Both the position numbers and the translations under genes were made by a program. Of a stretch of 33,629 nucleotides of DNA, positions 2,015-31,265 are shown in pieces (within the stretch, counting starts at the first letter, position 1; every line of letters begins with the position of its first letter). Source of the stretch: Neoroseomonas soli (GTDB taxonomy: Bacteria > Pseudomonadota > Alphaproteobacteria > Acetobacterales > Acetobacteraceae); assembly GCF_018129065.1 (NCBI RefSeq), contig NZ_JAAEDM010000058.1:1-33629 (forward strand), in the 5' to 3' direction. The notes under the pieces are model-generated. The model was given only the letters and a program-made list of their open reading frames with translations, searched no databases and was not told where the DNA came from.

Positions 2015-2072
2015 CGGCGCGGCCTCGCTCCCCTGGGCTGCCGCTGCCGGTGTGCGCGGCGGCTCCGCGTCG

Positions 2073-2221
2073 AGTCAACAATGCGAGCGAGGGAATCGTG
2101 CGGCGATGAGGCGAACCACGCGCCGGTTGCCGCCGCACCGCCGCGCCTAGTCAACAATGCGGGCAAGGGGATCGTGCGGCGATGAGGCGAGCCACGCGCC
2201 GGTTGCCGCGGCGCCGCCGCG
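2073..2221. repeat. Two-copy tandem repeat, 76-bp period
   Basis: Positions 2073-2145 and 2149-2221 are near-identical (about 6 differences in 73 bp), each beginning AGTCAACAATGCG. The pair fills most of the 245-bp space between the divergent membrane-protein and NHL genes. On the minus strand each copy carries a TTGACT-like hexamer (reverse complement of AGTCAA), so the duplication may have doubled a promoter element. No protein role is evident. Confidence 0.85.
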
Positions 2222-13518: not shown

Positions 13519-14826
13519 ATGGCGCGACGGCAGATGCATCTCGGTGTCTTCGTGCTCGGCACCGGCAACCACATCGCCGGCTGGCGGATGCCGGACGCCT
13601 ACGACTCCTTCCAGTCGCTGCCGGTCATCCAGCACATCGCGCGCATCGCGGAACGCGGCTGCTTCGACCTGCTGTTCCTGGGCGACACGCTGCAGGCCGG
13701 GGCGAACGACCATCCCTCCTACACCGCGCGGTTCGAGCCGATCACCATGCTCGCCGCGCTGGCGGCGAGCACGACGCATATCGGGCTCGGGGCCACGGCC
13801 TCGACCTCCTACAACGAGCCGTTCAACGTCGCGCGCTGGTTCGCCTCGCTGGATCATCTCAGCGGCGGGCGCGCGGCGTGGAATGCGGTGACGAGTTCCA
13901 ACCCGCGCGCGGCGCCGAATTTCGGGCGCGAGCACGCACCGCACGAAGCGCGCTACCGCGCCGCCGAGGAATTCGTCGATGTGGTGATGGGCCTGTGGGA
14001 CTGCTGGGACGAGGGCGCCATCGTCGCCGACCGCGCGAGCGGGCGTTACATCGACCCGGCGAGGATGCGCAGCCTCGATCATGTCGGCGAGTTCTTCAGC
14101 GTGAAGGGGCCGCTGAACATCGGGCGATGCCCGCAGGGGCGGCCGATCGTGCTGCAGGCGGGGGCGTCGGAGCCGGGGCTTAACCTGGCGGCGCGCACCG
14201 CGGACGTCGTCTTCTCGGTGGTGCAGGATCTCGAGGAGGCGAAGGCGGCCTATGCGTCCCTGAAGTCGCGCATGCCGGGCTTCGGGCGGCGGCCGGAGGA
14301 GATCGCGGTGCTGCCCGGCGTCATGCCCATCCTCGGGCGGACGCGGCAGGAAGCGCGGGACGTGCTGGACCGCCTGCAGTCCTTCACCACCGAGGGCAGC
14401 GCCGTGTCGCTGCTGTCGAGCCGGCTGGGCGTGGACGTCTCCGCCTTCCCGCCCGACGAGAAGGTGCCGGACCTGCCCCTGCCCTCGACCTCGCATGGCT
14501 TCGCGCGCGCGATGCTGTCGAAGGCGCGGCGGGAAGGGATGACCTGGCGTGACCTGCTGAACCTGACCGGCGCCGCGCGCGGCCACTGGGTGATCGCCGG
14601 CACGGCGACCGACATCGCCGACACGCTGCAGGAGTGGTTCGAAGGCGGTGCCGCGGACGGCTTCAACATCATGCCCGCCTGGTTCCCCGGCGCCTTCGAT
14701 GGCTTCGTGGACGAGGTGGTCCCCGAGTTGCAGCGCCGCGGCCTCTACCGCCGGCAGTACACGGCGAAGACGCTGCGCGGCCATCTCGGCCTGGACATGC
14801 CCGCGAACCGCTTCTTCCCGAAGTAG
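13519..14826 (+). CDS. LLM-class flavin-dependent monooxygenase (NtaA/SnaA/DszA family)
   Basis: A 435-residue FMN-dependent enzyme with a bacterial-luciferase-like barrel. Features in order are HLGVFVLGTGNHIAGWRMPD, FDLLFLGDTLQAG, STTHIGLGATASTSYNEPFN, ARWFASLDHLSGGRAAWNAV and TSSNPRAAPNFG. RPIVLQAGASEPGLNLAARTAD follows, then a C-terminal DGFNIMPAWFPGAFDGFVDE. Length and motifs match the nitrilotriacetate, pristinamycin and dibenzothiophene-sulfone monooxygenases, which need reduced FMN from a partner reductase. No reductase is adjacent. The ATG has GGAGG 6 nt upstream. The natural-looking end (NRFFPK) is followed by a TAG that is the first three bases of repeat element A. Confidence 0.9.
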   Translation: MARRQMHLGVFVLGTGNHIAGWRMPDAYDSFQSLPVIQHIARIAERGCFDLLFLGDTLQAGANDHPSYTARFEPITMLAALAASTTHIGLGATASTSYNEPFNVARWFASLDHLSGGRAAWNAVTSSNPRAAPNFGREHAPHEARYRAAEEFVDVVMGLWDCWDEGAIVADRASGRYIDPARMRSLDHVGEFFSVKGPLNIGRCPQGRPIVLQAGASEPGLNLAARTADVVFSVVQDLEEAKAAYASLKSRMPGFGRRPEEIAVLPGVMPILGRTRQEARDVLDRLQSFTTEGSAVSLLSSRLGVDVSAFPPDEKVPDLPLPSTSHGFARAMLSKARREGMTWRDLLNLTGAARGHWVIAGTATDIADTLQEWFEGGAADGFNIMPAWFPGAFDGFVDEVVPELQRRGLYRRQYTAKTLRGHLGLDMPANRFFPK

Positions 14827-14928
14827 AGCAGATCCCGATCAGTGGAATCATCTGACCGGGTGAAGATGCTCGCAAAAACAAGGGCCTGGAGCGGTGTTCG
14901 TGAGCCGAGGCGAACGGAAACCGCTTTA
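14824..14928 (+). repeat. Element A, copy 1 (degenerate)
   Basis: A 105-bp copy from TAGAGCAG to CCGCTTTA. Its internal hairpin is degraded (CCCGATCAGTGG, then CATCTGACCGGG), unlike the perfect stems of the two other copies. Its first three bases are the TAG stop of the LLM gene. Its last two (TA) are shared with element B copy 1. Confidence 0.9.
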
Positions 14929-15046
14929 GTGTCCTGATTCCGAAATCCTGCGGACTTCGTTCTCAGGCCACTAGGCTTTGTTTTGCGTGGCCTGCTTGTT
15001 CGCTTCGTTCGCTGGAAATCCAGCGAACTTCGCGTGCAGGACACTA
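14927..15046 (+). repeat. Element B, copy 1
   Basis: A 120-bp copy bounded by TAGTGTCCTG and CAGGACACTA, 8-bp perfect terminal inverted repeats (GTGTCCTG) inside TA dinucleotides. It has no coding capacity. It contains an internal stem (TTCGCTGG / CCAGCGAA). It is the reverse complement of the copy at 31042-31161. Confidence 0.9.
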
Positions 15047-15284
15047 GCCGCGCCGGATGGCCGGGAGCATTTCGCCGACCGCGACCTTCGACCTCAGGGC
15101 CGCGACGCTTTCGGTTAGTGGGACGAAGCGACTGCTCCCATAGCAGCACCGGACGGATGGATCCTCGCGGCGCGATGGGACGCGCAAGGAAATCCGTTGT
15201 TACCACAATTCGTGGTGGGCCGTGACCCGAACAAGCGCCTTTCGGGGCGATGCCGACCCAGGTTCCGTCAGCCTCTTGTGGGTA
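15047..15284. other. Intergenic, nothing recognised
   Basis: This stretch lies between element B and the stop of the GntR gene. Open frames here are short and Arg/Ser/Pro-rich, as expected for chance frames. I see no terminator with a T-run and no RNA gene. Confidence 0.5.
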
Positions 15285-15959
15285 TCACCGACCGCGCGCG
15301 ACGGCCCGGATGGAACGCTGAGTGTCGCGAATGTGCTCGGTGAGAAGCGCGACCGCTTCCTCGGTGCGTCCCTTCTGCACGAGGTCGAGCAGGCGATGGT
15401 GCTCGCGCTGCGGGCGTTCCTTGCCGGCAACCGTCGAGATCTTGCGCCGTGCGGCCGCGTTGAAGTGCTTGAAGTTGCGCTCGATGGCGTCAAGCAGTCG
15501 GCGGCACTCACAGGGCAGATAGAGTGCCCAGTGGAAGGCCCAGTTCATCGCCGACCATTTCGCGGGATCTGGTGCCGTGTCGTACTCCGCGAGGATCGCG
15601 CGCGCCGCAGCGATGTCGGCATCGGCGGCATTCGGCACGGCGAGGCGGAGCGCATGACACTCCAGCGCGATGCGGACCTCCAGCATCTCCTGGATCTCGG
15701 CATCGCTGACGATGGTGACCGTGGCGCCCCGGTTGGGCGAATAGTTGATCAGGCCCTCGGCCTGGAGCGCGCGCAGCGCCTCGCGCACCGGAATGCGGCT
15801 GGTGCCGAAGCGCAGCGCCAACTCTTCCTGGCGCAGGGGCGCGCCGGGCGCGAGCCGGCCTTCGACGATGTCCCGGCGCAGCGCCTCGGCCAGCGTCTCG
15901 GCGGCGAGGCCCGAGGGGGCGGTGTCTCTCGCCGTCTCAAGCACGGATGCGCGGCTCAT
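15285..15959 (-). CDS. GntR-family transcriptional regulator, FCD type
   Basis: A 224-residue regulator. The winged-helix domain (residues ~18-80) carries LAEALRRDIVEGRLAPGAPL and the recognition part RFGTSRIPVREALRALQAEG. The FCD effector domain follows with LEVRIALECHALRLA, NWAFHWALY, REHHRLLDLV and LLTEHIRDT; its histidines are placed as in the metal/ligand site of FCD proteins. The ATG is preceded by AGGAG, which overlaps the stop of the upstream oxidoreductase (TAGGAG), so the two are translationally linked. Such regulators usually repress adjacent catabolic operons and are released by a carboxylic or amino acid. GATTGGATACAAT sites at 17201 and 24781 are its probable targets. Confidence 0.9.
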   Translation of the reverse strand: MSRASVLETARDTAPSGLAAETLAEALRRDIVEGRLAPGAPLRQEELALRFGTSRIPVREALRALQAEGLINYSPNRGATVTIVSDAEIQEMLEVRIALECHALRLAVPNAADADIAAARAILAEYDTAPDPAKWSAMNWAFHWALYLPCECRRLLDAIERNFKHFNAAARRKISTVAGKERPQREHHRLLDLVQKGRTEEAVALLTEHIRDTQRSIRAVARGR

Positions 15960-15970
15960 TCGGTCATCTC

Positions 15971-17137
15971 CTACAGTATGCCGCGCTCGCGGTAGGGCTC
16001 GTTGCGCAGGACGCGATCCCAGCCGAGCCGCGCAAGGTCGATCGTTTGGTATCCGCCGTCCAGGATCAACTCGGCGATCGCCCGCCCGACGCCCGGTGCA
16101 TGCATCAGCCCGTGGCCTGAGAAGCCCGCCGCCATCAGGAAGCCCGGGCAGTCCGGCCAGGGTCCGATGATGGCGTTCCCGTCGAGTTCGTTCTGGTCGT
16201 AGAGGCCGGCCATGACGCTCTTCTCCCGGGTCCGCTCGAAGGCCGGGAACCGGTGCGCCAGCGCCGGCCAGACCACGCGTTCGAAATAGCCGTGATCGAC
16301 CTCGAAGTTGAAGCCCCGCGGCTCGTCGCTGTCCGGCATGCCACCCGTGTAGCCGCGCCCCTCGGGCCGGAAGGCCAGCCGGTCGAGGTCCTTGACGTAG
16401 GGGAGCGGCTCGATCGCGGTCTCGCACTCGAAGTAGTGCTCAAAGCGGCGCATCGGGCGGATCGGACTCCGCATCCCGGCCATGGCGCAGACCTGGTCGG
16501 CCCAGGCACCCGCGGCATTGACGACGAAACGCGTCGTCATCGACCCGCCCGAGGCGAAGCGGACTGCGCGGATGCGTGCGCCATCGCGCTCGATGGCCGC
16601 GGCCTCCTCCGGCAGGAATTCCGCACCCAGGTCGCGCGCCTTGCGGCGGAAGCCCTGCTGCACGCCGTGCGGATCAACCCAGGCATCGTCGAGGGAATGC
16701 GCAGCGAGCTCGAGGTCATCCACGAACATCGATGGGAAGCGGTGCTTCAGCGCCGCCCGGTCCAGCAGATCGATCCGCACGCCGTGCGCGCGCTGCGTGG
16801 CGGCACTCTCCTCCAGCAGCCGGGTGCCGCGCCCGTCCACGATGAAGAGGTAGCCGCCCTTGCGGAAGCTGATCTCCGCCGGGACGCCGTCCACGGCCAT
16901 CTCCTCCGCGAAGCGTTCGTAGAAGGGAATCGAGAAGTTCGAGAGCTGGATGTTCTCCGGCCCGGAGAAGAGGCGCCGCACCCCGCCCGAGGCGCGCGGC
17001 GTCGAGGCCAGCGCATAGGTCGGGTCGCGCTCGATCACCGTCACCCGCGGCGCGTTGTTCCGCATGCGCAGGAAGCAGGCGACGGCACAGCCGATCGCCC
17101 CTCCGCCGATGATGACCACGTCCGCGCTGCCCGGCAT
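15971..17137 (-). CDS. FAD-dependent oxidoreductase (DAO family)
   Basis: A 388-residue flavoprotein of the D-amino-acid oxidase/sarcosine oxidase fold. The dinucleotide-binding motif VVIIGGGAIGCAVACFL is near residues 7-23, followed by VTVIERDPTYALAS and RASGGVRRLFS. Near the end NAIIGPWPDCPGFLMAAGFS and GHGLMHAPGVGRAIAELI form the C-terminal FAD-contact region. Substrates of this fold are amines or N-substituted amino acids, oxidised to imines. The start with AGGGAG 6 nt upstream was chosen; a longer frame runs into the divergent promoter. It is the first gene of a two-gene unit with the GntR regulator and is divergent from a second FAD oxidoreductase. Confidence 0.87.
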   Translation of the reverse strand: MPGSADVVIIGGGAIGCAVACFLRMRNNAPRVTVIERDPTYALASTPRASGGVRRLFSGPENIQLSNFSIPFYERFAEEMAVDGVPAEISFRKGGYLFIVDGRGTRLLEESAATQRAHGVRIDLLDRAALKHRFPSMFVDDLELAAHSLDDAWVDPHGVQQGFRRKARDLGAEFLPEEAAAIERDGARIRAVRFASGGSMTTRFVVNAAGAWADQVCAMAGMRSPIRPMRRFEHYFECETAIEPLPYVKDLDRLAFRPEGRGYTGGMPDSDEPRGFNFEVDHGYFERVVWPALAHRFPAFERTREKSVMAGLYDQNELDGNAIIGPWPDCPGFLMAAGFSGHGLMHAPGVGRAIAELILDGGYQTIDLARLGWDRVLRNEPYRERGIL

Positions 17138-17238
17138 CCGGTGCTCCCTTTCTTGATTGGTGACGATAGGGGCTTGCCCGCAAGGATGCAATGTGATTAC
17201 GATTGGATACAATTTGAGGCGATGGGAAGGACCTACTG
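17138..17238. promoter_or_regulatory. Divergent promoter region of the two FAD oxidoreductase genes
   Basis: On the minus strand TTGCAT (17191-17186) and TATCGT (17168-17163) are separated by exactly 17 nt, a plausible promoter for the DAO-GntR unit. On the plus strand TACAAT (17208-17213) is a good -10 but lies inside the putative operator, and its -35 is weak. A repressor on the operator would block the plus promoter directly and sit just upstream of the minus -35. Confidence 0.45.
17201..17214 (+). promoter_or_regulatory. Putative GntR operator, site 1
   Basis: GATTGGATACAATT, with near-dyad ATTG/CAAT half sites around GATA. It is 24 nt upstream of the plus-strand FAD oxidoreductase start. 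Its first 13 bases recur in front of the amidohydrolase gene 7.6 kb away, in the same orientation relative to the gene. Palindromic AT-containing sites of this size are typical of FCD-type GntR proteins. Confidence 0.55.
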
Positions 17239-18615
17239 ATGAGCATCCCGGAGGGCGGTACGGACGTTGCCGTCATCGGCGCCGGCATCGTCGGCATCGC
17301 GGTGGCGCACTACCTGGCGGTGCGCCACGGCGTCCGCCGCCTGGTGCTCGTCGAACAGGGCGACCCCATGGCCCTGACCTCCGCCCAGTCGGGGGAGAAC
17401 TACAGGAACTGGTGGCCGCATCCGGTGATGCGCGCCTTCACCGACGACGCCATCGACCTGATGGAGGAGATCGCGCGCGCGAGCGACAATCGCCTGCGCA
17501 TGACACGGCGCGGCTACGCCCTCGTCACCCGGCGCGAAAACCCCGAGGACCTCTTCGCCGAACTTGCGCGCGGCTACGGCGACGGTGCCGCCTCGCGCAT
17601 CCGTTTCCACAAGGGCGGCGACACCGGCTACGTCCCGGCGACATCATCGGACTGGCGGACGGCACCGGATGGCGTGGACGTGCTCATGGATCGCGCGCTG
17701 ATCCGGGCGCATTTCCCGTCCTATGCGCCGGACGTCGCGACGATCCTGCACATCCGCCGGGCGGGCGATATCAGCGGCCAGCAGATGGGAGCGTGGATGC
17801 TGGAGCAGATCCGCACCGCGGGCGGGCGGCTGATGCGTGCGCGCCTTGCCGGCATCGATGGCGGCGCCCCCTTCACGCTCCGGCTGGAGGGCGCGAATGG
17901 TCCGACGACGCTGCGCGCGGATCGCATCGTCAACGCGGCCGGCCCCTTCTTCGGCGACGTCGCGGCCATGCTCGGCGAGCCAGTTCCGCTGCAGACCGTG
18001 TTCCAGCAGAAGATCGCCTTCGAGGATCGCGAGCGCGCAATTCCGCGCTCCATGCCCTTCTCCATCGACCTGGACGGCCAGACATTGTCCTGGACGGAGG
18101 AGGAGCGCGAGATCCTCGCCTCCGATCCGACGACCGTCCCGCTGACGCGCCCGATGCCCGGCGCGATCCATTGCCGGCCCGAAGGTGGCGATGGCGGCAC
18201 CTGGCTGAAGCTCGGCTGGGCGTACAACCGAACGCCCTCTGACCCGCATGCCGAGCCGCCGCCGGTCGATCCCAACTTTCCCGACGTGGTGCTGCGCGGC
18301 GCGAGCCGGCTGAATCCGTCGCTCGCCGCCTATCTCGGCCGGCTGCCACGTGGTGCGCGGCATTACGGCGGCTACTACGCCATGACGCCGGAGAACTGGC
18401 CGCTGATCGGGCCCATGCGCACGCCGGGTGCGTTCATGGCAGGCGCGCTGTCCGGCTATGGAACCATGGCGGCCACGGCGACGGGCGCGCTCTGCGCCGC
18501 CTGGATGCAGGATGCGGCGCGGCCGGACTACGCCGACCTCTTCACGCTGCGCCGCTACGACGATGCCGCGCTCATGGCGGAACTGCGCGGCGATGAAAGC
18601 AAGGGCGTCCTGTAA
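17239..18615 (+). CDS. FAD-dependent oxidoreductase (DAO family), second
   Basis: A 458-residue flavoprotein. The FAD motif VAVIGAGIVGIAVAHYLAVR is near residues 10-29, then LVLVEQGDPMALTSAQSGEN and YRNWWPHPVMRAF. RIVNAAGPFFGDVAAMLG and the C-terminal MTPENWPLIGPM with GALSGYGTMAATATGALCA form the second FAD contact. It is distantly related to its divergent neighbour, and longer. The role is probably oxidation of an amine or N-alkyl amino acid imported by the genes downstream; the substrate is unknown. The ATG has AAGGA 7 nt upstream. It heads a plus-strand unit continuing with three solute-binding proteins, 27 bp to the first. Confidence 0.87.
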   Translation: MSIPEGGTDVAVIGAGIVGIAVAHYLAVRHGVRRLVLVEQGDPMALTSAQSGENYRNWWPHPVMRAFTDDAIDLMEEIARASDNRLRMTRRGYALVTRRENPEDLFAELARGYGDGAASRIRFHKGGDTGYVPATSSDWRTAPDGVDVLMDRALIRAHFPSYAPDVATILHIRRAGDISGQQMGAWMLEQIRTAGGRLMRARLAGIDGGAPFTLRLEGANGPTTLRADRIVNAAGPFFGDVAAMLGEPVPLQTVFQQKIAFEDRERAIPRSMPFSIDLDGQTLSWTEEEREILASDPTTVPLTRPMPGAIHCRPEGGDGGTWLKLGWAYNRTPSDPHAEPPPVDPNFPDVVLRGASRLNPSLAAYLGRLPRGARHYGGYYAMTPENWPLIGPMRTPGAFMAGALSGYGTMAATATGALCAAWMQDAARPDYADLFTLRRYDDAALMAELRGDESKGVL

Positions 18616-18642
18616 CGCACCGCACGACAAGGAGGCATCGAC

Positions 18643-19707
18643 ATGAAAGCCAAGAAGACATCGGCACGGCGCCTGGCCACCATCCTCGGCGCGGTCACCG
18701 CACTCGCGGCGACATGGGGCGCAACCCCCGCCTTCGCCCAGGCCCAGCCGCAGGCGAATACGACCGAGGCGGTCCGCCAGCGCGGCACCCTGCGCTGCGG
18801 CGTGCAGGGGCCGAGCAATCCCGGCTTCGGCGCGCCCGACTCTCGTGGCGAATGGCAGGGCTTCAACGTGGACATCTGCCGCGCCATCGCGACGATGATC
18901 CTGGGTGATCCCAGCAAGATCAGCATCGTCCCACTCTCCACCCAGGCGCGCTTCCCGGCGCTGCAGTCAGGCGAGATCGACGTCGCGACCAACAGCACGA
19001 CCTGGACGATGCAGCGCGACGCGCAGCTTGGTTTCAACTTTCCGGCGATCGTCTTCTACGACGGGCAGGGCATCATGGTGCGCCGCTCGCTTGGCATCGA
19101 CAGCGCCACGAAGCTCGACGGCGCTACGGTCTGCGTGCCGCCCGGCACCACGACGGAACTCAACGTGACCGACTGGTTCCGGGCACGGAACCTGCGCTTC
19201 ACGCCGCTGGTCATCGAATCGCGCGTTGAACTGACCCGCGCCTACGATGCCGGCCGCTGCGACGCGATCACCTACGACGCGACCATCCTCTATGCCCAGC
19301 GCACCACGCTGCAGAACCCGCAGGACCACGTCGTCCTGCCGGAACGCCTGTCCAAGGAACCCCTCGGGGTGGCGGTGCGCCACGGCGACGACCGCTTCCA
19401 CGATATCGTCGGCTGGGCGGTCTTCACGCTGATCAACGCCGAGGAACTCGGCATCACCCGCACCAACGTCCGCGAGCAGCTCAACAGCCGCGACCCGCAG
19501 GTGCGCCGCCTGCTCGGCGTCGAGGGCGCGCTCGGCGAGACGCTCGGCATCTCCAACGACTTCGGCCTGCGCATGATCGAGGCGCTCGGCAACTACGGCG
19601 AGATCTTCGATCGCAACCTCGGCCCGGCGACGCCCCTCGGCGTCGATCGCGGGATCAACCGCCTCTACACGAATGGCGGCATCCTCTACGCGCCACCGAA
19701 CCGCTGA
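18643..19707 (+). CDS. ABC transporter amino-acid-binding protein (AapJ/BztA-like)
   Basis: A 354-residue periplasmic protein. The signal peptide ends near AFA-QAQ (residue ~32). The mature part opens with VRQRGTLRCGVQGPSNPGFG and continues with GFNVDICRAIATMILGD, DVATNSTTWTMQRDA and VCVPPGTTTELNVTDWFRA. It ends with the family's RDPQVRRLLGVEGALG block and ALGNYGEIFDRNLG. This is the general L-amino-acid-binding protein type (AapJ), which normally works with AapQ, AapM and AapP. None of these is present here. The ribosome site AAGGAGG with a 7-nt spacer is near optimal, as expected for an abundant binding protein. Confidence 0.9.
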   Translation: MKAKKTSARRLATILGAVTALAATWGATPAFAQAQPQANTTEAVRQRGTLRCGVQGPSNPGFGAPDSRGEWQGFNVDICRAIATMILGDPSKISIVPLSTQARFPALQSGEIDVATNSTTWTMQRDAQLGFNFPAIVFYDGQGIMVRRSLGIDSATKLDGATVCVPPGTTTELNVTDWFRARNLRFTPLVIESRVELTRAYDAGRCDAITYDATILYAQRTTLQNPQDHVVLPERLSKEPLGVAVRHGDDRFHDIVGWAVFTLINAEELGITRTNVREQLNSRDPQVRRLLGVEGALGETLGISNDFGLRMIEALGNYGEIFDRNLGPATPLGVDRGINRLYTNGGILYAPPNR

Positions 19708-19722
19708 GGTGCGCGCGATGCG

Positions 19723-19773
19723 CCTGGGCTGGCTGTTCCGTGGCGGGTCGCCGATCGGGACAGCCATCCCAGG
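19723..19773 (+). other. Long intercistronic stem-loop between binding-protein genes
   Basis: A 17-bp interrupted stem (left arm CCTGGGCTGGCTGTTCC, right arm GGGACAGCCATCCCAGG) with one mismatch, one G-U pair and a 17-nt loop. It starts 16 nt after the AapJ-like stop, with no T-run. Such stems commonly protect the upstream binding-protein mRNA from 3' decay. That role is inferred. Confidence 0.55.
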
Positions 19774-19807
19774 GCGAAAAGAGATCAAGGAAACAGAGGT
19801 GTCCAAG

Positions 19808-20800
19808 ATGCTTCGACGTCATGTCCTGCTTGCCGCACCCGCCCTGCTGATTGGCAAGGCGATCCACGCCCAGCCCATCGCGGGCGGGCGACCGGTTCGG
19901 TTGATCGTTCCCTTCGCGCCAGGCGGCGCCTTTGACCTGGTGGGACGCATCCTCGCCGAACGCCTGCCGGCCGCCCTGGGCAACCATGTCGTGGTGGAAA
20001 ACCGGGCCGGTGCCGGCGGCCTGATCGGCGTCGATGCAGTCGCCAAGGCGGACAAGGATGGCACGACCATCGGCCTGGTCGGCGTGGCGGCCCTCTGCGC
20101 GGCGCCCTTCCTCTACAGCCGGATGCCGTTCGATCCGGTGCGCGATCTCGCGCCCGTCACGCAGATCACGGATGGCGCGATGCTGTGCGTGGTCAATGCC
20201 GACAACGCGCGACGCAACGGATGGACCGATTTCCGCGCCCTGATCGCATGGGCGAAGGCGCATCCGGACACGCTGCGCATGGGCTATTCCGGGCCGGGTT
20301 CGACGGCGCATCTGAACATCATGACGGTCGGCCGCCTGACCGGGGCGAGCTTCCTGCGCGTGCCCTACCGCGGCGGCAGCACGACGATCAACGACCTCGT
20401 CGCCGGCCATATCGACATGATGTTCGATGTCATGCCCGCGCTCATTCCGCATGTGCAGGCGGGCGCGCTCGTGCCCCTCGCAGTGTCCACCCCGGAGCCG
20501 GTCGCGGCCGTGCCGAGCGTGCCGGGCATGGCCTCCTTCGCCGATCTCGGACTCGGGCAGTATTCCTTCGACACCTGGAACGCCATCATGGCGCCGGCCG
20601 GCACCCCCGGACCGATCGTCGCGCGGCTGTTCCAGGCGATCCGCCAGGTGGCCACGCAGCCGGATTTCGCCGAACGGCTGAAGCCGCTCGGCTACGGCGT
20701 CGTGACGAGCGAGAGCCCCGCCGCGCTGGCGGCGAAGATCGCGCGGGAGACGCCGGTGTGGAAGCAACTCGTGGAGACCTCCGGTGCCAGGCTCGACTGA
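19808..20800 (+). CDS. Tripartite tricarboxylate transporter substrate-binding protein (TctC/Bug family)
   Basis: A 330-residue periplasmic protein. A short signal peptide (LLAAPALLIGKAIHA) is followed by PVRLIVPFAPGGAFDLVGRI, the family's phosphate/carboxylate-binding loop. VVVENRAGAGGLIGVDAVAK, MGYSGPGSTAHLNIMTVGRL, VPYRGGSTTINDLVAGHIDM and the C-terminal YGVVTSESPAALAAKIARE are also diagnostic. Bug proteins bind carboxylates or amino acids for TctAB permeases or for sensing. No tctA or tctB is nearby. The ATG used has AGAGG 8 nt upstream; a GTG three codons earlier with AAGGA 7 nt upstream is equally possible. Confidence 0.9.
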   Translation: MLRRHVLLAAPALLIGKAIHAQPIAGGRPVRLIVPFAPGGAFDLVGRILAERLPAALGNHVVVENRAGAGGLIGVDAVAKADKDGTTIGLVGVAALCAAPFLYSRMPFDPVRDLAPVTQITDGAMLCVVNADNARRNGWTDFRALIAWAKAHPDTLRMGYSGPGSTAHLNIMTVGRLTGASFLRVPYRGGSTTINDLVAGHIDMMFDVMPALIPHVQAGALVPLAVSTPEPVAAVPSVPGMASFADLGLGQYSFDTWNAIMAPAGTPGPIVARLFQAIRQVATQPDFAERLKPLGYGVVTSESPAALAAKIARETPVWKQLVETSGARLD

Positions 20801-20831
20801 CCGCCTGCCCGCCCCTGCCGCGAGACCTGCC

Positions 20832-22436: not shown

Positions 22437-22441
22437 CGTGA

Positions 22442-23508
<1,067 letters not shown>

Positions 23509-23512
<4 letters not shown>

Positions 23513-24744
23513 TGCAGGGTATCCTTGTAGAAGCGGCCGCCCTTCATGATCGCGGCGATGTTGGGTCCACCGTCCTTGAAGATGCCGAGATCCGCATACG
23601 GATCGCCTTCGACGACGATCAGGTCCGCATGAGAGCCTGGGATCAACTCGCCCAATTGCCCCTCCTGCCGCAGGATGCGCGCATTCACCAGGGTCGCTGA
23701 GCGGATGACCTCGGCCGCCGGCATTGCCTCCCGGTGAATGGCAAGGCCATCGCATTGGTAGAGCTGGGTATGCATGGACAGGTCGGTGCCGAACCCGATC
23801 GGCACGCCGGCCGCCCGGCAGATCTCGAGCGAGGTGAGCCCGGCTGCGTTGACGCGCTCATTCTTCGCCAGGCTCACCGGCGACTTGCCGGACGCGGCAC
23901 CGAGGATCTTCGTCATGCGGTAGGTGATGAGGGTCGGGACGAGGAACGCGTCGCGCTCCGCCATCAGCGCCGCGGTCGGGGGTTCGATGAAGTTGCCATG
24001 CTCGATGGTGCGCACGCCGGCCAGGATGGCGCGGCGGATCGCCTCATCGGCATAGGCGTGACCGGCCACGTAGGTGCCCCAGCGGCGGGCCTCCTCGCAG
24101 ACCGCCTCGATCTCGTCCACGCGGTACTGCAGGCTGTCCAGCGGATCATTGGGCGAGGCGGTTCCGCCACTCAGCATGATCTTGATGTGGTCGGAGCCCT
24201 TGCGCAGCTCGTCGCGGACCGCCCGGAGCACCTCGGGCAGCCCATCGGCGATGACGCTGAAGATTTCCAGGGCTGAGCAGCAGATGAAATCATTGGTGGA
24301 ATCCGGGCGCAGGCGGAAATCGCCGTGGCCGCCCGTCTGGCTGATCGCGCGGCCGGAGACGAACAGCCGCGGCGTGTCGATGTAGCCGGCCTCCGACGCT
24401 TCCCTCATGCCATAGTCGCCGCCGGCCATGTCGCGCACCGTCGTGAAGCCGCGCATGAGCATGCCCTTGAGAACGAAGGCCGCCTTGGCGGAGGCATAGG
24501 TCACCGGCACATTGCGCAGCAGCCCGATGTTCATCTCGTTCATGAACATGTGGACATGCGCATCGATGAGGCCCGGCATCACGGTGCGCCCGCCAACGTC
24601 CACGCGCCGCGCGCTGGCCGAGCGGATCGGTGCATCGGACACTTCCCGGACCCGGTCGTCCTCGACCAGGACCTCGATGCCCTCCAGCAGCTCATCCCGT
24701 CGCGGATCGAGGAATCGGCCGCCATGCAGCACGATCATGCCCAT
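23509..24744 (-). CDS. Metal-dependent amidohydrolase (Xaa-Pro/Xaa-Arg dipeptidase-like, imidazolonepropionase clade)
   Basis: A 411-residue binuclear-metal amidohydrolase with all ligands visible: His63 and His65 in DAHVHMF, the carbamylated-lysine candidate Lys188 in HIKIMLSGG, His229 in VAGHAYADEA, His249 in IEHGNF and Asp321 in FGTDLSMH. The beta-sandwich ends (N-terminal LHGGRFLDP, C-terminal GSHADLIVVEGDP) are present. This clade includes peptidases releasing C-terminal Pro, Arg or Lys, so cleavage of a peptide or N-acyl amino acid is likely. The start was chosen for GGGAG 6 nt upstream; the longer frame runs through the putative operator. It is coupled to the CobW-type gene and carries GntR site 2 in its promoter. 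Confidence 0.87.
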
Positions 24745-24780
24745 CGCATACTCCCATGGTGCGAACGACAATCCGGAGTG

Positions 24781-24794
24781 GATTGTATCCAATC
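24781..24794 (-). promoter_or_regulatory. Putative GntR operator, site 2
   Basis: Read on the minus strand this is GATTGGATACAATC, 36 nt upstream of the amidohydrolase start. It matches site 1 in 13 of 14 positions and has better dyad symmetry (GATTG/CAATC). A TATAAA lies just upstream on the same strand, so the operator overlaps the promoter with either -10 choice (TATAAA or TACAAT). Confidence 0.55.
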
Positions 24795-24912
24795 TTTATA
24801 GATCATATACCAGTGAAGAAAGCGAGATCGCTTGTTCGCAGACGCCTCGCCATCTCCACGTGACGATGGCCGCCCGGGGCGCGGCCCTGCCTCCCATCTT
24901 CCAGCGGTTCGC

Positions 24913-25018
24913 TAGAGCAGATCCCGATCAGGTGGACTCACCTGATCGGGTGAAGATGCTCGCAAGAACAAAGGCCTGGAGCGGTGTTCGTGAGCCGAGG
25001 CGAACGGAAACCGTTCTA
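24913..25018 (+). repeat. Element A, copy 2
   Basis: A 106-bp copy from TAGAGCAG to CCGTTCTA, flanked so that CTAG is read at both ends. It contains a perfect 12-bp stem (CCCGATCAGGTG and its complement, loop GACT, 24923-24950). Its right-hand CTA, read on the minus strand, is the TAG stop of proC. It separates proC from the amidohydrolase promoter. The rest of the 270-bp gap (24795-24912) shows nothing recognisable. Confidence 0.92.
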
Positions 25019-25831
25019 GGCGACCGTCTCGCCCAGTTCGATCGACCGCCGGTGGGCCGCTTCCATGGCGCGCGAAAGGAGGTCCTGCAGGGTCTCTCCC
25101 TCCTCGAACACGCGCAGCGCCGCGTCGGTCGTCCCTGCCGGGCTGCGGACCGCCGCCTTGAGCTGCGCAGGATCGGCGCCCGGTACCGCGAGCATGGCCG
25201 ATGCGCCGGCAACCGTGGCGCGCGCCAGGACATCGGCCAGCGGCGCCGGCAGCCCAAGCGCGGCGCCGGCACGCGCCATCGCTTCCACCACGGCGAAGAC
25301 ATAGGCGGGCCCGCTGCCGGAGACCGCCGTGACGGCGTCGATCATCGCTTCCGCCGGCAGCCAGTGCGTCGTCCCCACCGCGCCGAAGAGCGCATCGCAG
25401 CGCTGACGGTCCTCCGCCGTGACCGAGGCCTCCGCCCAGAGCGCCGTCACGCCCGCGCCGACCAGGGCCGGGGTATTGGGCATGGTGCGGACGATGCGGG
25501 CCTCCGGCAGATGACGGCGCAGTGCCTCCACGCGCGCTCCGGCGACAATCGAGGCGACCAGGCCTCGCCCAGCCGCGGAAGCCGCAAGCGGCGGCAAGGC
25601 CACCGGCAACGCCTGTGGCTTGACGGCGAGAACGACCAGCGCCGGCCGGACCGCTTCGGGCAGCCGGTCCCGCACATCCACTGCCGCGCCGCGTGGCAGG
25701 AGAGCGCGGGCGCGCCCGGGATCGGGATCGACCGCCACGATCCGGGCCGCCGGCTTGCGCACAAGAAGCCCCGCGGCGAGTGCCGCGCCCATGTTGCCGC
25801 AGCCGAGGAGCAGGAGGTCGGTATCATGCAC
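25016..25831 (-). CDS. proC: Pyrroline-5-carboxylate reductase
   Basis: A 271-residue NADPH-dependent enzyme reducing pyrroline-5-carboxylate to proline. The Rossmann motif LLLLGCGNMGAALAAGLL is at the N-terminus, followed by VVLAVKPQALP, RTMPNTPALVGAGVTAL, and the ProC signature AVSGSGPAYVFAVVEAMARA with LKAAVRSPAGTTDAALRVFE in the dimerisation domain. The start is GTG; GAGGAA upstream overlaps the putA stop. It lies 13 bp after putA on the same strand, so the proline-forming step is apparently cotranscribed with proline oxidation. Its TAG stop is the end of element A. Confidence 0.9.
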   Translation of the reverse strand: MHDTDLLLLGCGNMGAALAAGLLVRKPAARIVAVDPDPGRARALLPRGAAVDVRDRLPEAVRPALVVLAVKPQALPVALPPLAASAAGRGLVASIVAGARVEALRRHLPEARIVRTMPNTPALVGAGVTALWAEASVTAEDRQRCDALFGAVGTTHWLPAEAMIDAVTAVSGSGPAYVFAVVEAMARAGAALGLPAPLADVLARATVAGASAMLAVPGADPAQLKAAVRSPAGTTDAALRVFEEGETLQDLLSRAMEAAHRRSIELGETVA

Positions 25832-25844
25832 GACGCGGTGTTCC

Positions 25845-28800
25845 TCAGAGGCTCATCAGGGACGCATTGCCGCCGGCGGCGGCGGTGTTGATGCTGGTGC
25901 TACGCTCGGCCACGAGCATGTCGGGCGGATAGATCTGTCCTGCTGCGACCTCCTGCGGCGACAGGGCGAGCACCGGGCGGATCGGCCCATCCGCTGCGGC
26001 GACGGCCTGGAGCAGCGCGCGCAGCGCCTCCGGGCCGCCTTCGAACAGGATGGCATCGAAGGCCCCCGGCTTCGTGTTCGCCGCCACGACGACGTGCGCT
26101 GCGAGGGCTGGGGGCATGCCGTCGAGTGCGTCCAGCACGGCCGCGGGGGCCTGCACGCGCACGGCATTGCCGGTCGCCAGGCAGGCCGTGACCTGCAACA
26201 GCAGGCCGTCCCGCGTCTCGGCATGGCAAAGCACGATGCCGCGCGGGTGCAGGCTGTATCGGTTCGCCTCGCCGACCGGACCCGGCAACTCGATGTCGAG
26301 GCCGGCACGCGATGCTGAGACCTGGCGCCCGGCGGCCTCCGCCATGCCGGGATGCCGGGCACGCAGCCAGTCGAGATAGGCCGCGGCTGCCGGGACCGGC
26401 ATCGTGGCCGGCAGCGGCGGCGCGGCGGGGCAGGCCGCGAGCAGCCGCCGCAGATACAGCGGCCCGCCCGCCTTCGGCCCGGTGCCCGACAGGCCATGCC
26501 CGCCGAAGGGCTGCACCCCCACCACCGCGCCGATCATGTTGCGGTTGACGTAGAGATTGCCCGCCACCGCCCGCGCCGTGACGTGCGCGACGGTCGCATC
26601 GATGCGCGAATGCACGCCGAAGGTCAGGCCGTAGCCGGTGGCCTCGATGTCGCGCAGCAGCGAGTCGAGTCCCTCGCGCCGGAAGCGCAGCACGTGCAGG
26701 ACGGGGCCGAAGACCTCCCGCGCCAGCTCCACCAGGCCGTCGATCTCAATCAGCGTCGGCGCGACGAAGGTGCCCTGCGCGCAGACCTCCGGCAGCGGGA
26801 TCGCGTGGACCCGGCGCCCCTTCGCGCGCATCGCCGCGATGTGGGCGAGGATGCCCTCGCGCGCTTCCGCCGTGATCACCGGCCCCACATCGGTCGCCAG
26901 CCGGTCCGTGTTGCCCAGCGCGAGGTCCGCCATGGCGCCGCGCAGCATCGCCAGCACGCGATCGGCGATCTCCTCCTGCAGGCACAACACGCGCAGCGCC
27001 GAACAACGCTGCCCCGCACTGTCGAAGGCGGAGGCCAGCACATCCGCCACCACCTGCTCGGGCAATGCGGAGGAATCCACCACCAGCGCGTTCTGCCCGC
27101 CGGTCTCGGCGATCAGCGGCACGGGCGTGCCGTCCGGGTTCAGCCGCTGGGCCAGGCTGCGGGCGATCAGCCGCGCCACCTCGGTCGAGCCGGTGAACAT
27201 CACGCCGCGCACCCGCGCATCGGCCACCAACTGCGCGCCGACGCGCCCGTCGCCAGGCAGCAGTTGCAGCGCGCCGGGCGGCACCCCAGCCTCATGCAGG
27301 ATGCCGACCGCGAGCGCGGCGATCAGCGGCGTCTCCTCGGCCGGCTTGGCGAGCACGACATTGCCGGCCGCGAGCGCCGCTGCGACCTGCCCGGTGAAGA
27401 TGGCGAGCGGGAAGTTCCACGGCGAGATGCAGGACACGGGGCCAAGCGGCACCTGCACGGCGGGATCGAAGCCGCGCGCCTGAGCGGCATAGTAGCGGAG
27501 GAAATCCACCGCCTCGCGCACTTCGCCGACCGCGTTCGCCAGCGTCTTGCCCGCCTCCCGCACGATCGGGCCGAGCAGCGCCGGCATCCGCGCTTCCAGC
27601 ATGTCGGCCGCGCGCTCCAGCAGGCCGGCCCGCGCGGCGGGCGGCGTGGCGGCCCAGCCCGGCGCGGCGGCCTCCGCCTGGGCGAGGGCGGTCTCCACCA
27701 CCTTCGGTGTCGCCTCGATCACCTCGCCCACCACGTCGCGATGGTCGGCGGGGTTGCGTACCGCGCGCGCCTCGCCCACCGCGGCGCCGTCTGCCAGAAG
27801 CGGCACGGCTTGCAGTGGCTGCGCAGCGGTGGCGGCCAGCGTCTCCGAGAGCGTCGCGAGCGTCGCCTCGTCGGCGAGGTCCAGCCCTGCCGAGTTCCGC
27901 CGCGTCGCGCCGAACAGGTCGCGTGGCAGGGCGATGCGCGGATGCGGCGCGCCGAGGGGCGTGATCGCGCGCGCTTCCGCCACCGGGTCCGCCGCCAGCG
28001 CCTCCACCGGCACGGAGGCATCGCCGATCCGGTGCACGAAGGAGGAATTCGCCCCGTTCTCCAGCAACCGCCGCACGAGATACGCCAGCAGCGTCTCATG
28101 CGTGCCGACCGGGGCGTAGATGCGGCAGGGCCGGTCCAGCCCGTCCGGCCCGACCACATCCTCGTAGAGCGGTTCGCCCATGCCGTGCAGGCATTGGAAT
28201 TCGTAGCGGCCGGGATGGAACTCCGGCCCGGCCATGGCGTGGATCGCGGCGAGCGTGCGCGCATTGTGCGTGGCGAATTGCGGGAAGACCGCGTCCGGCG
28301 CTTCCAGCAGCCTGCGCGCGCAGGCGAGGTAGGAGACGTCAGTGTGCACCTTGCGTGTGAAGACCGGGAAATCCTCCTGCCCTTCGATCTGCGCGCGCTT
28401 GATCTCGCTGTCCCAATAGGCGCCCTTGACCAGGCGCAGCATGATCCGGTGCCCGCTGCGGCGCGCCAGGTCGATGACCCAGTCGAGCACGAAGGGCGCA
28501 CGCTTGCCGTAGGCCTGGACGACGAAGCCGATGCCGTCCCAGCCCCGCAGCGCCGGCGCCGTGCACAGCGCCTCGAGGATGTCGAGCGAGAGGTCGAGCC
28601 GCTCGGATTCCTCCGCGTCGATGTTCAGCCCGATGTCGTGCCGCCGCGCCAGCGTCGCGAGGTGCAGAACGCGCGGCAGCAGTTCCGTCATCGCGCGGTT
28701 CCGCTGCGCGCGGGCGTAGCGCGGATGCAGCGCGGACAGCTTGATGCTGATCCCCGGCCCCTCGATGATTCCCCGCCCGGCCGAGGCTGCGCCGATCGCC

Positions 28801-29519
28801 GCGATCGCATCCTCGTAGGCACTCAGGTAGCGCGCCGCGTCCTCCGCCGTCGCCGCGGCCTCGCCCAGCATGTCGTAGGAGTGGCGGAAGCCGCGCGCCT
28901 CCATCTGCCGCGCGCGCGCCAGCGCCTCCCCGATCGTCTGGCCCATGACGAACTGCTCGCCCATCATCCGCATCGCGACGTCCATGCCGCGCCGAATCAC
29001 CGGTTCCCCGGCGCGGGCGAGCACCCTGCCGAGGGCGGCGCCCAGCCCCGGCTCGTCTTCCGCCGCGACGAGCCGTCCGGTCAGCATCAGCCCCCAGGTC
29101 GCCGCATTGACGAAGAGCGAGGGGCTGTGGCCGAGATGCGACCGCCAGTCGCCATGGCCGATCTTGTCGCGGATCAGCGCGTCGCGCGTGGCGGTGTCAG
29201 GGATGCGCAGCAGCGCCTCGGCGAGGCACATCAGCGCCACGCCTTCGGCCGAGGAGAGCGAGAATTCCTGCACCAGCGCCTCCACGATGCCGCTACGGCG
29301 CTTGCCGCGCAGCGCCGTGACCAGGCGGCGCGCGAGAGCCTCCGCCGCGGCGTCCTGCTCGTGCGACAGCGTCGCCGCGGTGATCAGCGACGGCAGGCAT
29401 TCCTCCTCTGCCCGGCGCGTGGCCGCGGTGATCGCGGCGCGCAGCGGGGGCTCCTGGCGTGTCTCGCTCACGAAGGCGGCGAAGGGCGCTGGGTGAGGCA
29501 CGTGGGGGACAGCAGACAT
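25845..29519 (-). CDS. putA: Bifunctional proline dehydrogenase / pyrroline-5-carboxylate dehydrogenase
   Basis: A 1224-residue enzyme converting proline to glutamate with FAD and NAD. The proline dehydrogenase barrel (about residues 170-490) has IEGPGISIKLSALHPRYA, LNIDAEESERLDLSLDIL, IMLRLVKGAYWDSEIKRAQ and EFQCLHGMGEPLYEDVVG. The aldehyde dehydrogenase part (about 560-1010) has SCISPWNFPLAIFTGQVAAA, FTGSTEVARLIAR, the catalytic Glu in LIAETGGQNA and Cys in SAGQRCSALR. About 200 further residues form the C-terminal domain of long PutAs. No ribbon-helix-helix domain is present at the N-terminus, so it is not a self-repressing PutA. The ATG with AGGAAG 5 nt upstream was chosen. It is divergent from a broken Lrp-type regulator and upstream of proC. 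Confidence 0.95.
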   Translation of the reverse strand: MSAVPHVPHPAPFAAFVSETRQEPPLRAAITAATRRAEEECLPSLITAATLSHEQDAAAEALARRLVTALRGKRRSGIVEALVQEFSLSSAEGVALMCLAEALLRIPDTATRDALIRDKIGHGDWRSHLGHSPSLFVNAATWGLMLTGRLVAAEDEPGLGAALGRVLARAGEPVIRRGMDVAMRMMGEQFVMGQTIGEALARARQMEARGFRHSYDMLGEAAATAEDAARYLSAYEDAIAAIGAASAGRGIIEGPGISIKLSALHPRYARAQRNRAMTELLPRVLHLATLARRHDIGLNIDAEESERLDLSLDILEALCTAPALRGWDGIGFVVQAYGKRAPFVLDWVIDLARRSGHRIMLRLVKGAYWDSEIKRAQIEGQEDFPVFTRKVHTDVSYLACARRLLEAPDAVFPQFATHNARTLAAIHAMAGPEFHPGRYEFQCLHGMGEPLYEDVVGPDGLDRPCRIYAPVGTHETLLAYLVRRLLENGANSSFVHRIGDASVPVEALAADPVAEARAITPLGAPHPRIALPRDLFGATRRNSAGLDLADEATLATLSETLAATAAQPLQAVPLLADGAAVGEARAVRNPADHRDVVGEVIEATPKVVETALAQAEAAAPGWAATPPAARAGLLERAADMLEARMPALLGPIVREAGKTLANAVGEVREAVDFLRYYAAQARGFDPAVQVPLGPVSCISPWNFPLAIFTGQVAAALAAGNVVLAKPAEETPLIAALAVGILHEAGVPPGALQLLPGDGRVGAQLVADARVRGVMFTGSTEVARLIARSLAQRLNPDGTPVPLIAETGGQNALVVDSSALPEQVVADVLASAFDSAGQRCSALRVLCLQEEIADRVLAMLRGAMADLALGNTDRLATDVGPVITAEAREGILAHIAAMRAKGRRVHAIPLPEVCAQGTFVAPTLIEIDGLVELAREVFGPVLHVLRFRREGLDSLLRDIEATGYGLTFGVHSRIDATVAHVTARAVAGNLYVNRNMIGAVVGVQPFGGHGLSGTGPKAGGPLYLRRLLAACPAAPPLPATMPVPAAAAYLDWLRARHPGMAEAAGRQVSASRAGLDIELPGPVGEANRYSLHPRGIVLCHAETRDGLLLQVTACLATGNAVRVQAPAAVLDALDGMPPALAAHVVVAANTKPGAFDAILFEGGPEALRALLQAVAAADGPIRPVLALSPQEVAAGQIYPPDMLVAERSTSINTAAAGGNASLMSL

Positions 29520-29632
29520 TGTCGCTTCCTGATCAGACTGCATTCAGGCCTGCAGGCTAGGAACGGCGTCGCCGGATAGGTATCGCAGAATTGCTAGAAA
29601 TACCGTGTTATTCGTGGTGTTTTAGCTCAGAT
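29520..29632. promoter_or_regulatory. Likely putA promoter and Lrp-type control region
   Basis: The stretch from about 29575 to 29632 is clearly AT-richer than anything nearby (GCAGAATTGCTAGAAAT, then TGTTATTCGTGGTGTTTTAG). It lies between putA and the divergent regulator remnant. In alphaproteobacteria PutR, an Lrp-type activator, binds this kind of region. I cannot place the -35/-10 with confidence. Confidence 0.4.
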
Positions 29633-29905
29633 ATGGTTAATCGTACTGGACCCGGCGCGCACCGACCGGGTGATCCTGGCATGCTCCAGCGCAAGAGGCG
29701 GATCACAAGCCTCGAATTGGCAGACCGCAACGGCCTGTCCCCAACCGCCGCCAGCGAAAGGACGCGCCGGCTTGTGAAGGACGGGTTCGGTGCGCGGCTC
29801 GACCCGCAGCGCCTCGGCTTCGGCCCGTTGTTTTCGTGGAGGTGCTGCCCGACAGGACCGCGCCCGACGCCTTCGATCTCTTCGCCGCTGCGTCACGCCG
29901 GAATC
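29633..29905 (+). pseudogene. Decayed Lrp/AsnC-family regulator, PutR-like
   Basis: Pieces of one Lrp-type regulator appear in three frames. LDPARTDRVILA (from 29646) is in one frame. LQRKRRITSLELADRNGLSP with TAASERTRRLVKDGF and GARLDPQRLGFG is in a second. VEVLPDRTAPDAFDLFAAAS is in a third. Together they give the helix-turn-helix and the beginning of the ligand-binding domain, about half of a normal ~150-residue protein; after ~29905 similarity ends. At least two frameshifts and a 3' loss make it non-functional. The position, divergent from putA, is that of PutR, which activates putA in response to proline. The 29906-30110 remainder shows nothing recognisable. Confidence 0.75.
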
Positions 29906-30110
29906 ATCCAGCACCTCATCCCCGACCGGAGGCCGCTTGGCGCCGGGGCTGCCACGGCCCGGACGCGTCCCTCGCGACGAAGGATGGCGTCACGCGGCTT
30001 CCTGTCGGCTCGCTGACGCCCTGCGTCAGCCGCAGGTCAGCGGCGCTGCCGCATTCCTCGGCGCATCGCCCTGCAACACGCAGCGCGACGCTTCGAAGGA
30101 CAAGGATCTC

Positions 30111-30389
30111 ATGCGCAAGCTCGCCATCGCCGCCGCCGCACTCGCTTCCGTGGGCGCCTTCGCGGCCGTCGCCCAGGCCGGTAGCCTCGGCCGTCCCTGC
30201 ACCTCCGCTCCCGAAAGCCAGTGGCTCACGCTCGATGCGCTGCGGGCCCGGGCGGAGGCCGAGGGCTACCGGGTCCAGAGGGCGAAGATCAAGGCCGCCT
30301 GCGGCGAGATCTACGCGCTCGACCGCAATGGCGCGCGCGTCGAGCTGTTCCTGGACCCGGCCTCGGGCCGGATCGTCGCGACCCAGTGA
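30111..30389 (+). CDS. Small exported PepSY-domain protein
   Basis: A 92-residue protein with a signal peptide (LAIAAAALASVGAFAAVAQA). A single PepSY-like domain follows: WLTLDALRARAEAEGYRV, then KAACGEIYALDRNGARVELF and the family's closing FLDPASGRIV. Two cysteines (in RPCTS and AACGE) could pair in the periplasm. PepSY domains are regulatory or inhibitory modules often found beside two-component systems and membrane cytochromes. The ATG has AAGGA 4 nt upstream. Earlier in-frame starts run into the decayed regulator and were not used. A cytochrome b561 gene follows after 15 bp. Confidence 0.8.
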   Translation: MRKLAIAAAALASVGAFAAVAQAGSLGRPCTSAPESQWLTLDALRARAEAEGYRVQRAKIKAACGEIYALDRNGARVELFLDPASGRIVATQ

Positions 30390-30404
30390 AGAGCGGGACG
30401 TGAC

Positions 30405-31010
30405 ATGACGCTCCGCAGCGATGCGGCCGAAGCCGGCGGCGCGATGCCGCCGGAGACGGCCATCGCCCCCGGCGGCCGGGGCGCCGCGCCGGCAGGCACG
30501 GTTCCGGTGTGGGATCCCTTCGTGCGCTTCTTCCACTGGAGCCTGGTCGGCCTTTTCGCCCTCGCCTTCGCGACTGGCGACGAGGTCGAATGGCTGCACC
30601 TGGCGGCCGGCTATTCCGTCGCGGCCCTCGTCGCGCTCCGGCTCGTCTGGGGCTTCGTCGGCGCGCGGCACGCCCGCTTCTCCGGCTTCGTCCGCCCGCC
30701 GCGGGAAGTGTTGGCCTATCTGCGCGACGCCGCCCGGCTGCGGGCGCCGCGCCATCTCGGGCACAATCCGGCCGGAGGCGCGATGGTCGTCGCCCTGCTC
30801 GGGATGCTGGCCGGCCTTACCGCGACCGGCTTCATGATGACGACGGACGCCTTCTGGGGCGCGCAATGGGTGGAGGACCTGCATGAGGGCTTCGCCAACG
30901 CGACGCTGCTCCTCATCGGCCTCCATGTGGCCGGCGTCCTCTTCGCCAGCTTCGAGCACGGCGAGAACCTGGTCCGGGCGATGATCACCGGCCGCAAGCG
31001 CGCCCGCTGA
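30405..31010 (+). CDS. Cytochrome b561-type membrane protein
   Basis: A 201-residue membrane protein with four hydrophobic segments. VWDPFVRFFHWSLVGLFALA contains the first haem-ligand His, WLHLAAGYSVAALVALRLVW the second, and the C-terminal half has EDLHEGFANATLLLIGLHVA with further histidines. This is the two-haem b-type cytochrome layout that passes electrons across the inner membrane. The ~30-residue N-terminal extension is Ala/Gly/Pro-rich and not conserved-looking. GGGA lies 6 nt upstream of the ATG. It pairs with the PepSY gene in a two-gene unit, a common combination. Confidence 0.88.
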   Translation: MTLRSDAAEAGGAMPPETAIAPGGRGAAPAGTVPVWDPFVRFFHWSLVGLFALAFATGDEVEWLHLAAGYSVAALVALRLVWGFVGARHARFSGFVRPPREVLAYLRDAARLRAPRHLGHNPAGGAMVVALLGMLAGLTATGFMMTTDAFWGAQWVEDLHEGFANATLLLIGLHVAGVLFASFEHGENLVRAMITGRKRAR

Positions 31011-31041
31011 GGGCCCGCAGGCCGACGGCCCGGGCGATCGC

Positions 31042-31161
31042 TAGTGTCCTGCCCGTGAAGTTCGCTGGATTTCCAGCGAACGAAGCGGACAAGCAGGCCA
31101 CTGAAAACAAAGGCTGGTGGCCTGAGAACGAAGTCCGCAGGATTTCGGAATCAGGACACCA
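31042..31161 (-). repeat. Element B, copy 2 (opposite orientation to copy 1)
   Basis: A 120-bp copy bounded by TAGTGTCCTG and CAGGACACCA. It has the stem TTCGCTGG/CCAGCGAA (31061-31080) and a second pairing CAGGCCAC/GTGGCCTG. It is nearly the exact reverse complement of 14927-15046. Its right end overlaps the left end of element A copy 3 by two bases. Confidence 0.92.
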
Positions 31162-31265
31162 GAGCAGATCCCGATCAGGTGGACTCACCTGATCGGGTGA
31201 AGATGCTCGCAAGAACAAAGGCCTGGAGCGGTGTTCGTGAGCCGGGGCGAACGGAAACCGCTCTA
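31160..31265 (+). repeat. Element A, copy 3
   Basis: A 106-bp copy, almost identical to copy 2 (left end CAGAGCAG, right end CCGCTCTA), with the same perfect 12-bp stem at 31170-31197. Its terminal CTA, read on the minus strand, is the TAG stop of the sensor kinase gene. Elements A and B together fill nearly all the space between the convergent cytochrome and kinase genes. Confidence 0.92.

What the first reader, a model, noticed from the sequence alone, without database searches (positions are those of the whole stretch)
14824..31265. Element A supplies the TAG stop codon of its neighbour in all three copies
Copies at 14824-14928, 24913-25018 and 31160-31265 each begin or end exactly at the stop codon of a flanking gene. 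The LLM monooxygenase uses the left TAG; proC and the sensor kinase use the right end read backwards. Three of three is unlikely to be chance. Proposed mechanism: a TA-targeting non-autonomous element. In GC-rich coding DNA the TA dinucleotide is scarce except in TAG/TAA stops, so such an element lands at gene ends without breaking genes, and then places a 12-bp hairpin directly after the stop. That could turn it into a dispersed 3'-UTR module.
Basis: partly seen in the sequence, partly recalled or inferred. Interest (0 to 1): 0.75.

Follow-up and report, generated by a model that had tools for sequence, protein, structure and literature searches.

The report
Mobile two-hairpin repeats at stop codons
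A mobile DNA repeat of about 106 bases is scattered through this bacterium and sits very often exactly at the stop codons of genes, most likely because it inserts at a short site that is harmless to hit there; the stop codon usually came first and was not supplied by the repeat.

Summary
In 1.08 Mb read from this 5.24 Mb draft genome there are 108 copies of element A and 25 of a second element B, at 104 merged sites. At 66 of the 104 a gene's stop lies exactly at an outer end.

'A supplies the TAG' is mostly not supported. Orthologues in relatives end at the same residue in 18 of 26 gene-genome pairs for seven genes and 4 of 11 for the LLM gene, and use TAG more often than average. The stop usually came first; TA appears to be duplicated on insertion.

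'TA is scarce except at stops' is wrong: 2947 TA in genes against 61 at stops in 400 kb. CTAG is the preferred site. Availability of CTAG does not explain everything: stops are 63% of sites against 26% of unoccupied non-genic CTAG. The excess is confined to convergent gene pairs.

A fits the published outline of alphaproteobacterial CIR elements (two arms, linker, TA ends, GANTC in a loop), though four diverged relatives lack GANTC and sequence kinship to CIR was not testable. REP termini providing TAG stops are already in print (PMC3733652). I file it as a new member of a known kind, with an unexplained excess at convergent stops.

The parts
14824..14928 (+). Element A, copy 1; left TAG is the stop of the LLM monooxygenase gene; right TA shared with element B
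24913..25018 (+). Element A, copy 2; right end read backwards is the TAG stop of proC
31160..31265 (+). Element A, copy 3; right end read backwards is the TAG stop of the sensor kinase gene; left end mutated to CAG and joined to element B
14927..15046 (+). Element B, copy 1, abutting A copy 1
31042..31161 (-). Element B, copy 2, abutting A copy 3
24915..24963 (+). First arm of A copy 2 (12-bp stem with a 5-bp outer stem); approximate limits from the fold
24974..25021 (+). Second arm of A copy 2; approximate limits from the fold
24935..24939 (+). GANTC (GACTC) in the loop of the first arm, copy 2
   Evidence: sequence; columns
14845..14849 (+). GANTC (GAATC) in the first arm, copy 1
   Evidence: sequence
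31182..31186 (+). GANTC (GACTC) in the first arm, copy 3
   Evidence: sequence
13534..14826 (+). Luciferase-like (LLM) monooxygenase gene ending at A copy 1
25016..25831 (-). proC (pyrroline-5-carboxylate reductase) ending at A copy 2
31263..32684 (-). Sensor histidine kinase gene ending at A copy 3

Best explanation
Element A is a non-autonomous mobile repeat made of two hairpins and a linker, of the CIR kind. It inserts at TA, preferably within CTAG, and duplicates the TA (partly shown). CTAG is rare in the GC-rich genes but its TAG is often a stop codon. At a stop the duplication leaves the gene ending intact, so insertions there survive, above all between convergent genes where no promoter lies (survival is inferred from occupancy). 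Insertions in genes or between divergent genes are lost. After insertion the end that serves as stop stays TAG while other ends decay. The transposase is unknown.
For: 66 of 104 sites at a stop, 0 in genes, 2 between divergent genes. Estimated occupancy of CTAG: convergent stops 55%, codirectional stops 11%, other 3' spacers 9-10%, divergent 1%, genes 0% (the convergent-stop estimate rests on 3 empty sites). Base outside the terminal dinucleotide is C at 155 of 199 ends. Two nested copies whose interrupted linker matches a sister copy in length if one TA was target (by eye). Five sites with a TAG for each of two convergent genes. Same stop residue in 18 of 26 and 4 of 11 orthologue comparisons; TAG in 10 of those 22 against 15% in this genome's background, P = 7e-4, or 7 of 17 without four paralogue rows and G007, P = 0.008 (rows are not independent). 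Stop-serving ends 69 TAG and 2 TAA, against 42 TAG of 128 other ends, and only 4 genes run into an element.
Against: Only one empty site clean on both sides, and there the relative reads TCAG (stop TGA), so TA duplication is not directly shown. 8 of 26 and 7 of 11 orthologue comparisons stop elsewhere. CTAG availability does not account for the excess at convergent stops (47:3 against 15:10, P = 5.5e-4). TA is intact at both ends in only 27 of 93 good copies. No partner transposase found.
Confidence: 0.66

Rival explanations
1. Retention for function. A inserts widely, but copies behind stops, mainly between convergent genes, are kept because the two hairpins shield or end both transcripts, as a 3'-end module.
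For: Excess only at convergent stops; stable folds on both strands, z = -9.5 and -5.0; sites 62 convergent, 35 codirectional, 2 divergent against gene pairs 51, 234, 45 in background.
Against: No terminator-like site at A; 5 in the region against 5.0 expected. Orientation to the gene is not significantly biased (A 35:22, P = 0.11; B 7:7). Avoidance of promoters gives much of the same pattern.
Confidence: 0.17
2. The element really supplies or converts the stop: it carries its own TAG ends and lands near gene ends, replacing TGA by TAG or shortening the gene slightly.
For: At the clean empty site the relative's stop is TGA and own is TAG. 12 of 22 same-position orthologue stops are not TAG. Five of 26 and 4 of 11 orthologues are longer.
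Against: Three of 26 and 3 of 11 are shorter, and 22 of 37 end at the same residue, which chance landing near gene ends would not give. TAG is over-represented in those orthologues.
Confidence: 0.1
3. A is a REPIN-like pair of REPs moved by a RAYT-type tyrosine transposase, tagged CTAG instead of GTAG.
For: Two inverted hairpins, each with TAG at its foot; [quoted passage not shown]
Against: Tag is CTAG, arms are longer than 20-40 bp REPs and joined in a fixed 106-bp unit; nested copies suggest TA duplication. RAYT genes were not searched for.
Confidence: 0.05

Closest known systems
CIR elements (CcrM-associated intergenic repeats of Caulobacter and Brucella; as described in PMC2229807, section 7 and Table 1 passages)
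   Same: About 110 bp, two long inverted repeats forming two arms joined by a linker, TA at the ends, GANTC at the loop of one arm, intergenic only, alphaproteobacterial host with a CcrM-like gene.
   Different: Two of six frames of A have no stop (the review reports stops in all six for CIR). Four diverged relatives of A lack GANTC. No CIR sequence was at hand for comparison. CIR placement at stop codons is not mentioned in what I read.
GTAG-tagged REPs (PMC3733652)
   Same: Termini often provide TAG stops to flanking genes; mostly in convergent or unidirectional spacers.
   Different: 20-40 bp units with one GTAG end, linked to RAYT transposases; A is a 106-bp double hairpin with CTAG at both ends.
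TA-duplicating bacterial MITEs: Correia/NEMIS, ERIC, RUP (PMC2229807)
   Same: About 100-155 bp, non-autonomous, TA at termini, target duplication; RUP is linked to IS630-Spn1.
   Different: Those fold by pairing of 5' and 3' ends; A folds as two separate arms. No partner found for A.

Membership tests
CIR elements | about 110 bp | tested here: met
   105-107 bp in 90 of 93 good copies
CIR elements | two inverted-repeat arms joined by a linker | tested here: met
   fold of copy 2 and of the consensus
CIR elements | GANTC at or near a terminal loop of one arm | tested here: met
   75 of 93 own copies and 15 of 19 G006 copies; N has 24 parsimony steps against 5, 10, 8, 4 for G, A, T, C. Absent in relatives from G007, Komagataeibacter, Indioceanicola and Tistrella
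CIR elements | TA at the termini | tested here: met
   consensus TA at both ends; intact at both ends in 27 of 93
CIR elements | not found inside genes | tested here: met
   0 of 104 sites
CIR elements | stop codons in all six frames (reported as unpublished) | tested here: not met
   no stop in one forward and one reverse frame of the consensus; not a defining feature in my view
CIR elements | sequence kinship with CIR1-CIR4 | not testable with these tools
   the 2003 paper is not held
GTAG REP / REPIN | GTAG tag on a 20-40 bp palindrome | tested here: not met
   base before TA is C at 155 of 199 ends; fixed 106-bp unit
GTAG REP / REPIN | RAYT transposase in the genome | not tested
   no search made
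IS630-type MITE | TA target duplication | tested here: inconclusive
   nested copies agree; the one clean empty site has CA
IS630-type MITE | partner transposon with the same ends | tested here: not met
   one broken DDE_3 gene without A or B ends within the held locus; draft assembly, so a partner could be missing

The most novel reading that the evidence does not exclude
A CIR-like element that seeks, or is strongly retained at, the shared 3' boundary of convergent genes, giving each gene its own TAG, a hairpin pair usable in both directions and a CcrM methylation site, so that cell-cycle methylation could act at transcript ends.
Probability: 0.12. Interest if true: 0.72.

Novelty: new member of a known kind. 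Interest (0 to 1): 0.45.

Why it matters
The review read here says more information is needed on how CIR elements move (PMC2229807). This genome offers about a hundred copies with defined ends, nested insertions and a strong positional rule, so target choice can be tested. The freely varying N inside an otherwise kept GANTC suggests that the methylation site itself is under constraint in this lineage. It also warns that a stop codon at the edge of a repeat need not have come from the repeat.

Tried and rejected
Blind fetching of 1.2 Mb of relative G006 gave few usable empty sites; only L060 was clean on both sides. Partners of IS630 type and of DUF4096 (IS5-like) type were sought: one broken gene and three loci, none with A or B ends; one DUF4096 locus (L249) has the bare hexamers TAGAGC and GCTCTA 1.4 kb apart around the gene, with no further likeness to A that I could see. 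Other transposase families were not searched. Rfam gave no match in the window at gathering thresholds. A first gene caller misread the LLM gene and was replaced. Seven paper searches listed nothing that describes A or B; I saw listings for these, passages of PMC2229807 (and its section 7), PMC2759123, PMC5082802 and PMC3733652. A scan of named genomes for the 19-base core gave 3 records, which match the profile only over the core with E 0.007-0.03, so I take them as chance. The idea that IS870 and IS1031 of the IS5 family share this target is recalled; searches gave no support.

Full report
Observation. The genes are a luciferase-like monooxygenase, proC and a histidine kinase. The left dinucleotide of copy 3 has decayed to CA.

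Copies in the genome. A 19-base core matches 77 times with up to 3 mismatches, against 3 for the reversed control; the left end matches 94 times against 0. The first similarity search listed 46 but scored only 40 of 128 candidates. I fetched stretches around the core and left-end hits except one left-end hit (C47), and 400 kb of background; B hits elsewhere were not fetched, so B is under-counted. In the 1.08 Mb held, a profile finds 108 copies of A (score 28 or more) and 25 of B (score 60 or more), merging into 104 sites.

Stops. 66 of 104 sites have a stop at an outer end; 61 at one end and 5 at both. Of 199 outer ends, 71 serve as stops (69 TAG, 2 TAA). Of the other 128, 42 read TAG, 40 TGG, 18 CAG and 28 something else. 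Four genes run into an element, two of them by one base beyond the stop position. A stop-serving end must read as a stop, so the contrast is partly by construction; what is informative is how few genes run on through a decayed end.

More than the target gives? In 400 kb of background, TA occurs 2947 times in genes, 639 times between genes and 61 times at stops. Unoccupied CTAG: 13 stops, 37 intergenic, 19 in genes. Stops are 63% of sites against 26% of non-genic CTAG, P = 1.5e-5. By context, codirectional spacers show no excess (17:10 against 18:14, P = 0.79); convergent ones do (47:3 against 15:10, P = 5.5e-4). Occupied sites are counted over the genome stretches and empty sites in a sample, so these are rates, not a census. 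Sites are 62 convergent, 35 codirectional, 2 divergent and 5 at stretch edges; background gene pairs are 51, 234 and 45.

Which came first. Nine gene ends were sought in four relatives; seven gave rows above 55% identity among the 30 loci returned, proC and one other did not. Counting each gene once per genome, the stop is at the same residue in 18 of 26 pairs, later in 5, earlier in 3. Four of the 26 are paralogue rows at 63-66% identity, all at the same residue. For the LLM gene 4 of 11 relatives stop at the same residue, 4 later, 3 earlier. TAG is used in 10 of the 22 same-position cases, against 51 of 339 stops in this genome's background and 141 of 1120 in G006. A profile check of the 41 relative loci finds A-like sequence in two: at the LLM stop of G007, and in L208 about 0.9 kb from the match. 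So the LLM case in G007 is not element-free: a diverged two-hairpin element sits at the same TAG there, either an old shared insertion or a second one. Its core matches once in G007 and not in three other relatives.

Insertion. Two A copies (in L065 and L085) lie inside older A copies at the same linker position; the interrupted linker fits a sister copy (L229) in length if one TA belonged to the target (by eye). At L060 the relative has ACGTCAGGCGCC where own has GCGCCAG, element, TAGGCGCC: one dinucleotide repeated, position kept, stop codon TGA in the relative. This neither proves nor excludes TA duplication.

What A is. It folds as two arms (-63.9 kcal/mol, z = -9.5; reverse strand z = -5.0). 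GANTC lies in the first loop in 75 of 93 own copies and 15 of 19 G006 copies. On a tree made without those columns, N changes 24 times and its neighbours 5, 10, 8 and 4 times; unpaired columns average 10.2, and two other columns also reach 24. A CcrM-like gene with a RAMA domain is present (the methylase reading of the frame is by eye). A brings few of the genome's GANTC sites: background intergenic density is 1.93 per kb.

Relatives. In 1.2 Mb of G006, 28 A-like hits, 8 with a TAG stop exactly at an end. In the genus the exact core within 2 mismatches occurs in 2 of 35 genomes, this one included. Diverged relatives lie on plasmids of Komagataeibacter, Indioceanicola and Tistrella; the Indioceanicola copy begins at the TAG ending a 313-codon frame. 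None of these three, nor the G007 copy, has GANTC, which speaks against GANTC as a fixed mark of the whole family.

Known and new. That REP termini often provide TAG stops is in print for another repeat class (PMC3733652). Added here are the count, the context control, the orthologue test and the behaviour of GANTC.

Noticed in passing
L118 from about 2790 (G007): A diverged two-hairpin element sits at the orthologous LLM stop codon of another species.
   Followed up: partly
L254:1201-1306 (Indioceanicola profundi plasmid): An A-family copy begins exactly at the TAG that ends a 313-codon frame, in another family of Rhodospirillales.
   Followed up: partly
L215 (G013), after the stop of the L051 orthologue: A short hairpin stands right behind the TAG, too diverged for the A profile (by eye; one search found no match).
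   Followed up: no
L086 next to the A copy at 3336-3441; L138, L145, L148, L159, L187 of G006: Another dispersed repeat of about 140 bp shared with G006 abuts A.
   Followed up: no
window 14927-15046 and 31042-31161: Element B shares TA/CTAG ends with A, abuts it often, and also lies at stops; 14 of the 71 stop ends belong to B copies.
   Followed up: partly
window 2046-2197: A 76-base tandem duplication, 83% identical.
   Followed up: no
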